In this document: one piece after another, positions 20,257 through 23,292 of the stretch
How positions within the stretch are numbered: the stretch's first letter is position 1
Layout of the letters: every line of letters begins with the position of its first letter
NCBI GenBank assembly: GCA_003279685.1
Contig: QCHA01000004.1
Location: 1 to 64,000, forward strand
Direction of reading: 5' to 3'
DNA: 64,000 nucleotides
Origin: Pelagibacteraceae bacterium AG-390-L03
GTDB lineage: Bacteria; Pseudomonadota; Alphaproteobacteria; Pelagibacterales; Pelagibacteraceae
Translations under genes and position numbers: made by a program
The notes under the pieces: generated by a model
Told to the model about the DNA's origin: nothing
The model's input: only the letters and a program-made list of their open reading frames with translations
The model's database searches: none

Positions 20257-21183
20257 TTATATCCTTGAATCTATATAGTTTAAAATCTCTGAATTATATT
20301 CCTGGAAACATGTAGCTTGATCCATTTGATGGCCATCATTTACTGGAAATTTATCTGTTGATTTTTTACCTAATTTAAAACATTTTTTACCATTAATTTT
20401 ATAATCTGTAGATATAATAATTCTATTCATACCGTCTACATTATCTAACCAATCTGATGTAAGTCCTTCAAATGTGTCTTTTGGATGTGTAAAAACTAAC
20501 AGAGGTGTCTTAACTTGATTTAAAATTTCATCATTATATTTGGCTCTTAGGTCAAATTGAGCAGGTTTCTTTTTTTTGAATCTTGCTAGCGCCTCCTCTA
20601 GACCTTTTTTTTTTACTTTGTACTTTTTGCTTAATTTATCAAAACATGCTGGCGCATATGCTATTCCTCCACCTGCTTTTTCTGGATGTCTTGCAAAAAA
20701 CATTAGGGTCGTAAGACCACCACATGAATGTCCAGTAACAAAAACTTGTTTTCTTGGTATTCCAAGAGATACTAATTTTTCAACCAACTCTAAATTTTGC
20801 TCAACTCTTCTATCGAGTTTTGATTTTCCCACATATGGTTTCTTTGATATCCACCATGCTTTGCCCATGTCTCCTTTTATTTTGTGAGCACATAAATTAT
20901 AAACCATAATTTTTTTTCCACTAACTTCCTGATCTATTAAGGATAAACGATTTCGAACTTGATCAACAGTAGTGCAGTCTTTTTGAGTACCATCTAGATT
21001 ATTTTGACCATGATTGTTAATTAAAACAATTTTGTTTTTTGGATTTTTAATTGTTGATAACTCAGTAATTTTAAAGTCTTTTGAAAAAAAACCTTCTTTT
21101 TTAATTGCATGCCCATCACTAAATGCAAATTTAGTAGATAAAATAAAAATTGATAAAAATATGATTAATGTTTTTTTATACAC
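20257..21183 (-). CDS. Secreted alpha/beta hydrolase-like protein
   Basis: N-terminal signal peptide (LIIFLSIFILSTKFAFS); VFVTGHSCGGLTTLMF nucleophile elbow; C-terminal His in NDGHQMD. Confidence 0.75.
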   Translation of the reverse strand: MYKKTLIIFLSIFILSTKFAFSDGHAIKKEGFFSKDFKITELSTIKNPKNKIVLINNHGQNNLDGTQKDCTTVDQVRNRLSLIDQEVSGKKIMVYNLCAHKIKGDMGKAWWISKKPYVGKSKLDRRVEQNLELVEKLVSLGIPRKQVFVTGHSCGGLTTLMFFARHPEKAGGGIAYAPACFDKLSKKYKVKKKGLEEALARFKKKKPAQFDLRAKYNDEILNQVKTPLLVFTHPKDTFEGLTSDWLDNVDGMNRIIISTDYKINGKKCFKLGKKSTDKFPVNDGHQMDQATCFQEYNSEILNYIDSRI

Positions 21184-21466
21184 CTTTAATAATTATATTT
21201 GTCCCTTCAGAATTATCGAGTCTTATTTGTTTTATTGGTTTGTACTCTTCGGAGTTGTACCACTCTAGCGCTTTTTCATAACTTGGGAATTTAACTATAA
21301 TTATTCTTGGAAATTGAGTTTCACCATCAAAAATTTTATATTCTCCATTTCTTACAAGAAATTCTCCACTAAATTTTTTAACAATTGGAGTAACTTTTTC
21401 TACGTACTCTTTATAATTTTCTGGATTAGTGACTTTTAATTGTGCAATTACAAAACCTGCGGGCAT
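21176..21466 (-). CDS. DUF1330-family protein
   Basis: AGFVIAQLKVTNPENYKEYVEKVTPIVKKFSGEFLVRNGEY...IIIVKFPSYEKALEWYNSEEYKPI. Confidence 0.88.
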   Translation of the reverse strand: MPAGFVIAQLKVTNPENYKEYVEKVTPIVKKFSGEFLVRNGEYKIFDGETQFPRIIIVKFPSYEKALEWYNSEEYKPIKQIRLDNSEGTNIIIKGV

Positions 21467-21486: not shown

Positions 21487-22779
21487 CTAATTTTTACAGT
21501 TAGATGGATGTGTTTCATAGTTTTGTTCATCTAAATATTTGAATCGATTAAATAAAAATTTATTTACTTTTTCATAATTTTTTTTTGAAATTCTATCTTC
21601 TTTGCACCTTGATGCATACCACCATAAAACTGTTTCTGCTAAATCTTCACGGTTGGGATATTCCCATGCATAATCTGAAACATAATACTTATCTGTACTA
21701 ATGGCATTCAGCCACATATCTTCTTCAATAGATTTTGTACCCCAATGCCAATCAAGTGAGATATGAACTAATTCATGAAACATAGACTCTTCTATATATT
21801 TTCTATTTTCTTTTATAAAAGTATTTGTATGAATTATTGCATACCCATTTCCACCTGCCCAACTAGGATTACCTTTATGGATGATTAAATATTTTACTTT
21901 TTTCCTTAAAAAAGCAGGCATTTGTCCAAATATTTTTCCAAATTTAATTGCTTGTTTTTCTGCTTTTTTTAAATCTTTAAATTCATCATTAACCTTTATT
22001 AAAATATCATCTGTATTTTCAAATGATGCTTTATATACAAAAACAGAGAAATCTATTTTTTCCCATTTGGAATTTCTATTTTTAAAAGTTCTTTTATCGA
22101 AATCTAATAATTTTTTTTTTTCTATAAATACAACCTCTTTAAAGATACTTGGATCATTTTTTTTTATAATATCGCTATCAATAAATGTTGAGGCTTTATT
22201 AAAAATAAAATTTTTACTTATACTTATAGTTTTTACAGATTTGTCCATCTCCCATATTGCAACTTCTTTTACACCATCGTTCCAAATCATTATTCCTTCA
22301 CCATGTCTATTGTTATTTTTCCATTCACCAGTATAAATGCCCCCTCCATCATTATAAAAATATTTACCTTGTCCAGTTCTTTGGCTATTTGCCCAATCAC
22401 CTTCATATCTATCACCATTAGGCCATTTAAAAGTTCCTTTTCCATTGATACAATTGCCCTCTACGCAGCCGGTTTTAAGGACCGTTTTATTTTCTAAAAT
22501 TTTTTTTTTGCCTACTGCAAAAAGTTTGCATTCACCATTTATTCCTTTTTCTTTTCTATGTTTTTCACAATCATTAAATCCATCTTGCTTCTCTGATCCA
22601 CGTCCGTACTCACATCTTCCGTCATTACCAACTACGACAAAAAGATGATCTTCTGAATCTTGTTTAGAAAGATCAGCATAAACTTCATCAATTATCCAAT
22701 CACATATTTGTTGATTTTCTGCATTAGAGTTACCAAAAAATAAAAGAAATAATATGAATAAAGAAAATAAACTTCTCAT
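21487..22779 (-). CDS. Secreted MORN-repeat protein with HExxH metallopeptidase-like C-terminal domain
   Basis: Signal peptide; MORN repeats GDRYEGDWANSQRTGQGKYFY / IYTGEWKNNNRHGEGIMIW; SMFHELVHISLDWHW ... NREDLAETVLWWY. Confidence 0.72.
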   Translation of the reverse strand: MRSLFSLFILFLLFFGNSNAENQQICDWIIDEVYADLSKQDSEDHLFVVVGNDGRCEYGRGSEKQDGFNDCEKHRKEKGINGECKLFAVGKKKILENKTVLKTGCVEGNCINGKGTFKWPNGDRYEGDWANSQRTGQGKYFYNDGGGIYTGEWKNNNRHGEGIMIWNDGVKEVAIWEMDKSVKTISISKNFIFNKASTFIDSDIIKKNDPSIFKEVVFIEKKKLLDFDKRTFKNRNSKWEKIDFSVFVYKASFENTDDILIKVNDEFKDLKKAEKQAIKFGKIFGQMPAFLRKKVKYLIIHKGNPSWAGGNGYAIIHTNTFIKENRKYIEESMFHELVHISLDWHWGTKSIEEDMWLNAISTDKYYVSDYAWEYPNREDLAETVLWWYASRCKEDRISKKNYEKVNKFLFNRFKYLDEQNYETHPSNCKN

Positions 22780-23292
22780 TTAAAATATTGATTTTAAATA
22801 TTTTTTCCAATTATCTTGATAATGTTTCGTATTTTCTAGGACTGCTTTCTTTTCTACTTCTGTTACCTCTCTAATTACTCTGCCGGGAGAACCTACAACT
22901 AAAGAATTATCAGGTATCACCTTGTTCTCAGTAATTAATGATTTAGCTCCAATAATACAATTTTTACCTATTTTAGCTTTATTTAGAATTACAGCTCCAA
23001 TACCAATCATACTATTATCTCCAATAGTACACCCATGAAGCATAACAAGATGGCCTACTGTTACATCTTTTCCAACTTTTAAAGGACAACCAGGATCAGT
23101 GTGTAAAACACTACCGTCTTGAATATTAGACCCTTCACCAATGTGAATATTTTCAATATCTCCGCGTAAAACTGCGTTAAACCAAATACTAGAGTTTTTT
23201 TCTAATGTAACGTCCCCTATGATTGTTGCATTTGGAGCCACCCAATTTTCACCAGAGTTTTGAGGTTTTTTATCTTTTAAATCATAGAACAT
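22780..23292 (-). CDS. Gamma carbonic anhydrase-family hexapeptide-repeat protein
   Basis: SSIWFNAVLRGDIENIHIGEGSNIQDGSVLHTD...VGHLVMLHGCTIGDNSMIGIGAVILN. Confidence 0.92.
   Translation of the reverse strand: MFYDLKDKKPQNSGENWVAPNATIIGDVTLEKNSSIWFNAVLRGDIENIHIGEGSNIQDGSVLHTDPGCPLKVGKDVTVGHLVMLHGCTIGDNSMIGIGAVILNKAKIGKNCIIGAKSLITENKVIPDNSLVVGSPGRVIREVTEVEKKAVLENTKHYQDNWKKYLKSIF

What the first reader, a model, noticed from the sequence alone, without database searches (positions are those of the whole stretch)
21487..22779. Secreted MORN-repeat / HExxH metallopeptidase-like fusion
A 430-aa ORF has a signal peptide, at least two or three MORN-type YxGxW...GxG repeats, then a C-terminal domain with FHELVHISLDWHW (HExxH, nt 21763-21777) and, about 40 residues later, SDYAWEYPNREDLAETVLWWY. 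The NP-xEDxAE pattern resembles the third Zn ligand region of gluzincin-like (ATLF/PPEP-like) peptidases. This domain combination in a streamlined bacterium is unusual.
Basis: partly seen in the sequence, partly recalled or inferred. Interest (0 to 1): 0.6.

Follow-up and report, generated by a model that had tools for sequence, protein, structure and literature searches.

The report
Secreted MORN-linked zinc peptidase, SAR11
A tiny-genome ocean bacterium carries a rare exported protein that joins a beta-repeat (MORN) stalk to a predicted zinc protein-cutting domain; that domain belongs to an unnamed enzyme family found in about ten bacterial phyla.

Summary
ORF 21487-22779 (-) encodes a signal peptide, a Cys-rich N-terminal module, three Pfam MORN repeats and a C-terminal domain with HELVH at exactly nt 21763-21777. 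The zinc-site call is strongly supported: in 46 relatives from about ten phyla His335, Glu336, His339, Tyr370, Glu378 and Asp379 are invariant, and the Glu336-Glu378 (42) and Tyr370-Glu378 (8) spacings match the published PPEP-3 site (43 and 7). All three modules are under purifying selection (dN/dS 0.11-0.18). The domain models well (pLDDT 90.6, pTM 0.90). It shares the PPEP catalytic layout, but whole-fold similarity is weak (TM 0.3-0.4, no hit at E<=0.001). No member matches Pfam ATLF, and no curated model passes its cut-off; the nearest sequence kin are Peptidase_Mx1/Mx (PF15890, PF15887) and TIGR04549 lipoproteins, over the HExxH-to-C-terminus half. I read it as a new, unnamed family of secreted gluzincin-type endopeptidases; about 3% of sampled SAR11 genomes carry it, some fused to MORN arrays of varying length. 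The gene sits in a compact minus-strand cluster with a secreted alpha/beta-hydrolase. Substrate and activity are untested.

The parts
21487..22779 (-). 430-aa secreted MORN-peptidase fusion gene
22720..22779 (-). Sec signal peptide, residues 1-20 (cleavage SNA|EN)
   Evidence: read from sequence; mature N-terminus ENQQICDW conserved in L006/L007 while the signal peptide diverges (dN/dS 1.09)
22471..22719 (-). N-terminal Cys module, residues 21-103 (C26, C56, C71, C84); no Pfam match
   Evidence: found only in this fusion in 297 genomes
22408..22449 (-). MORN repeat 1 (partial)
   Evidence: PF02493
22342..22407 (-). MORN repeat 2
   Evidence: PF02493
22273..22335 (-). MORN repeat 3
   Evidence: PF02493, 33.3 bits
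21490..22236 (-). C-terminal predicted zinc peptidase domain, residues 182-430
   Evidence: 46-member alignment A4; AlphaFold2 pLDDT 90.6, pTM 0.90
21763..21777 (-). HELVH, residues 335-339: two predicted zinc ligands and the catalytic base Glu336
   Evidence: invariant H, E, H in 46/46
21691..21693 (-). Asp363, invariant
   Evidence: 46/46
21670..21672 (-). Tyr370, predicted oxyanion-stabilising Tyr (counterpart of PPEP-3 Tyr190)
   Evidence: 46/46; PPEP-3 roles from PMC12828418
21643..21648 (-). Glu378 (predicted third zinc ligand) and Asp379
   Evidence: 46/46
21544..21546 (-). Arg412, invariant, in the C-terminal NR motif
   Evidence: 46/46
22780..23292 (-). Upstream hexapeptide-repeat (gamma-carbonic-anhydrase-like) gene, 0-nt gap
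   Evidence: synteny
21176..21466 (-). Downstream DUF1330 gene, 20-nt gap, syntenic in five genomes
20257..21183 (-). Downstream secreted alpha/beta-hydrolase, overlapping DUF1330 by 8 nt

Best explanation
The gene encodes an extracytoplasmic zinc endopeptidase of an unnamed gluzincin-type family. After Sec export and signal cleavage (inferred), the Cys module and MORN array form a rigid stalk or binding arm in the periplasm or on the cell surface (inferred). The C-terminal domain binds Zn through His335, His339 and Glu378; Glu336 activates water and Tyr370 stabilises the oxyanion (inferred from invariance, spacing and the PPEP parallel). It cuts an exposed peptide or an envelope/extracellular protein, probably alongside the co-clustered secreted alpha/beta-hydrolase, as an accessory trait for using or remodelling extracellular polymer (weakest step).
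For: Catalytic residues invariant in 46 homologues from about ten phyla. High-confidence model with HExxH on one helix, Tyr on a short helix and Glu on the next, the published PPEP order. Best metallopeptidase fold matches are PPEP-3, -2 and -1. Profile-profile link over the HExxH-to-C-terminus half to a SAR11 paralogue that is itself a Peptidase_Mx1 member. Purifying selection on every mature module. Export signals are common among relatives (by eye): lipoprotein-type signals in Bacteroidota, giant multidomain proteins in Alphaproteobacteria. Cys392 and Cys428 are both present in 10 SAR11 members and both absent in the other two, as expected of a disulphide outside the cytoplasm. Compact cluster with a secreted hydrolase; a 357-aa secreted alpha/beta-hydrolase overlaps the start of divergent peptidase genes at two different loci, in G088 and G240.
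Against: No activity data. No solved structure matches at E<=0.001. Three members score weakly against an HExxH peptide beta-hydroxylase model, so HExxH need not mean protease. No conserved partner across phyla. MORN function in bacteria is poorly known. Hydrolase pairing is not universal: G109 lacks it.
Confidence: 0.66

Rival explanations
1. True M34/PPEP-type endopeptidase: a divergent member of the ATLF/PPEP family that cuts surface adhesins or Pro-rich linkers to release cells or proteins.
For: Best PDB metallopeptidase matches are PPEPs; catalytic residue order and spacing match PPEP-3.
Against: TM only 0.3-0.4; no Pfam ATLF hit in 46 members; nearest sequence profiles are Mx1/Mx/TIGR04549. 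Pro-Pro specificity cannot be tested here.
Confidence: 0.12
2. Antagonistic effector: the peptidase is delivered against competitors, and the MORN/N-module is its delivery or receptor-binding part.
For: A distant relative sits behind a PAAR domain (L037), and a phage-encoded 1098-aa intein-annotated protein contains a similar predicted fold.
Against: SAR11 and most other members have ordinary export signals (by eye), no PAAR, VgrG or Hint domain, and no recurrent immunity-like neighbour. No phage or plasmid match for the queries tried.
Confidence: 0.08
3. Used for something other than peptide hydrolysis, such as an iron/2-oxoglutarate HExxH peptide hydroxylase, or a binding-only pseudoenzyme.
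For: Three of 46 members hit TIGR04267 weakly, best E=0.006.
Against: aKG-dependent HEXXH enzymes are described in RiPP biosynthesis (PMC12636437, abstract); here no RiPP precursor was seen and the protein is exported. Tyr370 and Glu378 fit the zinc peptidase scheme and never vary, which speaks against a pseudoenzyme.
Confidence: 0.08

Closest known systems
Peptidase_Mx1 (PF15890) / Peptidase_Mx (PF15887) / TIGR04549 LP_HExxH_w_tonB (PDB 9urd)
   Same: HExxH helix and the following Y...EDxxE helix; exported, often lipoproteins; hhalign P=5.7e-6 to an Mx1-type SAR11 paralogue; 7/46 members hit TIGR04549, best 8.4e-5
   Different: All hits are weak; alignment covers only the C-terminal catalytic half; MORN fusion; own N-terminal beta layer and G(Q/R)xPxxL and NR motifs
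Pro-Pro endopeptidases PPEP-1/2/3 (M34-like)
   Same: HExxH ... Tyr ... Glu catalytic set with near-identical spacing; all-helical C-terminal subdomain; secreted
   Different: TM 0.3-0.4, no significant E-value; different N-terminal secondary structure in the model; no Pfam ATLF match; substrate unknown
MORN-repeat proteins (PF02493)
   Same: Three canonical MORN repeats here, seven Pfam stretches in the 563-aa orthologue L006
   Different: Here exported and fused to a metallopeptidase; array shortened by about 133 residues against L006

Membership tests
Gluzincin-type zinc metallopeptidase | HExxH with an invariant downstream Glu as third ligand | tested here: met
   46/46 homologues
Gluzincin-type zinc metallopeptidase | Ligands converge on one metal site; metal bound; peptide bond hydrolysed | not testable with these tools
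   Only secondary structure and confidence were returned for the model; no coordinates or assay
PPEP / M34 (ATLF) | HExxH, oxyanion Tyr about 7 before the third-ligand Glu, Glu-to-Glu spacing about 42-43 | tested here: met
   42 and 8 here, Tyr-Glu 7 in eight relatives; PPEP-3 Glu154/Tyr190/Glu197
PPEP / M34 (ATLF) | Whole-domain fold match to PPEP structures | tested here: inconclusive
   Prob 0.82, TM 0.37-0.42, E 0.05-0.09; with the better model only PPEP-1, prob 0.60, TM 0.30-0.38
PPEP / M34 (ATLF) | Pfam ATLF profile match | tested here: not met
   Absent among families hit at E<=0.1 by 46 members
PPEP / M34 (ATLF) | Pro-Pro bond cleavage | not testable with these tools
   Needs an enzyme assay
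Peptidase_Mx1 / Mx / TIGR04549 | Score above curated cut-off | tested here: not met
   No hit for the window protein; best among members 7.9e-4 (PF15890), 2.2e-3 (PF15887), 8.4e-5 (TIGR04549)
Peptidase_Mx1 / Mx / TIGR04549 | Homologous HExxH-to-C-terminus catalytic half | tested here: met
   hhalign P=5.7e-6 against a SAR11 family that hits PF15890 at 2.1e-8
MORN repeat protein | PF02493 above cut-off, tandem copies | tested here: met
   50.3 bits, three stretches

The most novel reading that the evidence does not exclude
The domain founds a new peptidase family with an N-terminal subdomain not seen in the PDB, present in about ten phyla, and SAR11 uses MORN arrays of changeable length as a stalk that sets the reach of an extracytoplasmic protease.
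Probability: 0.35. Interest if true: 0.6.

Novelty: new variant of a known kind. Interest (0 to 1): 0.42.

Why it matters
The domain is an unannotated secreted metallopeptidase family spanning Pseudomonadota, Bacteroidota, Acidobacteriota, Gemmatimonadota, Verrucomicrobiota, Chloroflexota and others, with no Pfam or NCBIfam model of its own. Naming it would annotate many hypothetical proteins. In SAR11, whose genomes are streamlined, a rare exported hydrolase cluster at conserved synteny would be a concrete handle on how some lineages use or modify extracellular polymer.

Tried and rejected
Viral contig scans with the single protein and with A1 found no relative. Phage and plasmid tblastn gave nothing for the queries tried. 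A genome-contig scan with A1 failed for lack of a conserved stretch; A3 worked. Literature on MORN in SAR11 or bacterial MORN metallopeptidases gave nothing relevant. Gene neighbourhoods across phyla show no conserved partner; the larger clusters there mostly reflect related genomes and antisense frames. The G402 copy, at first taken for a split MORN gene plus peptidase gene, looks like a fusion broken by a frameshift in an A-rich run, real or assembly error. The promoter scan is at chance level. PDB hits to influenza PB2 and the like are noise (prob below 0.1).

Full report
Observation. The 430-aa ORF is real, correctly placed, and carries every feature listed. HELVH lies at nt 21763-21777 exactly. 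MORN is the only Pfam match (E=1.4e-13, three stretches), and neither Pfam nor NCBIfam names the C-terminal half. Synonymous against amino-acid change relative to the orthologue L006 shows purifying selection on the N-module, MORN array and catalytic domain (dN/dS 0.11, 0.15, 0.18), so this is a maintained protein.

Distribution. The window lies in a 1.35-Mb, 19-contig genome that I take to be SAR11: named relatives are Candidatus Pelagibacter HTCC9565 and other Pelagibacteraceae (L103, L105-L107). With the catalytic domain as query, 8 of 297 family genomes match; with a profile, 14 of 347 order genomes match, of which 11 strongly. It is an accessory gene. A scan of named genomes with profile A3 found 68 loci in Alpha- and Gammaproteobacteria, Acidobacteriota, Gemmatimonadota, Bacteroidota, Balneolota, Verrucomicrobiota, Planctomycetota, Chloroflexota, Neomarinimicrobiota and one Bacillota MAG. 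Most are MAGs, so a few taxon labels may be binning errors. In the tree the 12 SAR11 sequences lie on one side of a branch with support 97/82, compatible with a single origin in SAR11; the tree is unrooted and long branches blur deeper order.

Active site. In alignment A4 of 46 sequences, invariant residues in window numbering are G285, H335, E336, H339, D363, Y370, E378, D379 and R412. The HExxH Glu to third-ligand Glu spacing is 42 here (36-42 across the family) and Tyr to Glu is 8 (7 in eight members, 12 in one). The PPEP-3 paper gives His153/Glu154/His157, oxyanion Tyr190 and third ligand Glu197, i.e. 43 and 7 (PMC12828418). The AlphaFold2 model from A4 has pLDDT 90.6 and pTM 0.90; the HExxH helix is followed by a helix, a short Tyr helix and the Glu helix, the order published for PPEP. 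The tools return no coordinates, so ligand distances could not be measured.

Fold and family. The better model keeps PPEP-1 (prob 0.60, 120 columns) but nothing at E<=0.001; the whole fold is therefore not clearly matched in the PDB, and the shared part is the catalytic core. By sequence, members lean to Peptidase_Mx (10 of 46, weak), Peptidase_Mx1 (4 of 46, weak) and TIGR04549 (7 of 46, best 8.4e-5). Profile A4 aligns to PDB 9urd, a TIGR04549-named lipoprotein, across HExxH and the YA...RED motif, but at E=0.08. A SAR11 paralogue of 243 aa is a Peptidase_Mx1 member above Pfam's cut-off (E=2.1e-8), and A4 aligns to it from the HExxH helix to the C-terminus at P=5.7e-6. I conclude a distinct family with a catalytic half homologous to Mx1/TIGR04549 and a PPEP-like catalytic layout.

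Export and architecture. The window protein and its relatives carry N-terminal hydrophobic signals; Bacteroidota members look like lipoproteins, and alphaproteobacterial members head giant multidomain proteins. These are my readings; no signal predictor was run. Cys392 and Cys428 are both present in 10 SAR11 members and both absent in L008 and L009, as expected of a disulphide; L051 alone has the first without the second. MORN arrays also front the catalytic domain in L009, a different genus with a different N-module, so the association either is old in this branch or arose twice. Against L006 the window protein lacks about 133 residues of MORN array.

Neighbourhood. The gene is preceded without a gap by a hexapeptide-repeat gene and followed by DUF1330 and a secreted alpha/beta-hydrolase, all on the minus strand. 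The MORN-peptidase and DUF1330 between the same flanking genes recur in G088, G109, G352 and G382. A 357-aa secreted alpha/beta-hydrolase overlaps the start of the peptidase gene in G088, and again in G240 at another locus beside a peptidase only about 28% identical to the window's, which suggests the two travel together. Others, such as G109, lack it. A second, unrelated HExxH gene without a Pfam match sits nearby in several genomes. Outside SAR11 no functional partner recurs.

Mechanism. Shown: gene reality, export-type start, MORN array, invariant site, confident model, selection. Inferred: zinc binding, catalysis, localisation, MORN as stalk or binding arm, the cut substrate. I put 0.66 on an extracytoplasmic zinc endopeptidase, with true PPEP membership, an antagonistic effector role and non-proteolytic HExxH chemistry as rivals. 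The effector rival rests on a PAAR-linked relative and one phage fold match, neither resembling the SAR11 arrangement.

Noticed in passing
L108:9883-11193; L109:4766-5713; L113:5855-7150: A second secreted HExxH family (HEMHHAMGG, HELFHALG) with no Pfam match sits near the MORN-peptidase in several SAR11 genomes, and some copies carry a Cys-rich N-module that looks like the one on peptidases L008 and L030, suggesting module exchange.
   Followed up: partly
L037:1486-2811 (-): A PAAR-domain protein with a C-terminal HExxH domain distantly related to this family, a possible type VI secretion effector; a relative of its C-terminal part lies on a Paraburkholderia megaplasmid.
   Followed up: partly
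L127 (G000:C11:6735-7442): The window's own genome has a Peptidase_Mx1-type secreted protein of about 240 aa, 52% identical to the SAR11 paralogue L027.
   Followed up: partly
L113:7153-8788 (-): The G402 copy of the fusion looks frameshifted in an A-rich run between the MORN array and the peptidase; decay or assembly error.
   Followed up: no
G000:C7:43097-43297: The only other MORN gene found in this genome, a short frame of 128 aa with three repeats.
   Followed up: no
BFVD A0A8S5Q538: A 1098-aa siphovirus protein annotated 'Intein splicing domain' matches the catalytic model at E=1.3e-4, prob 1.00, TM 0.45.
   Followed up: no
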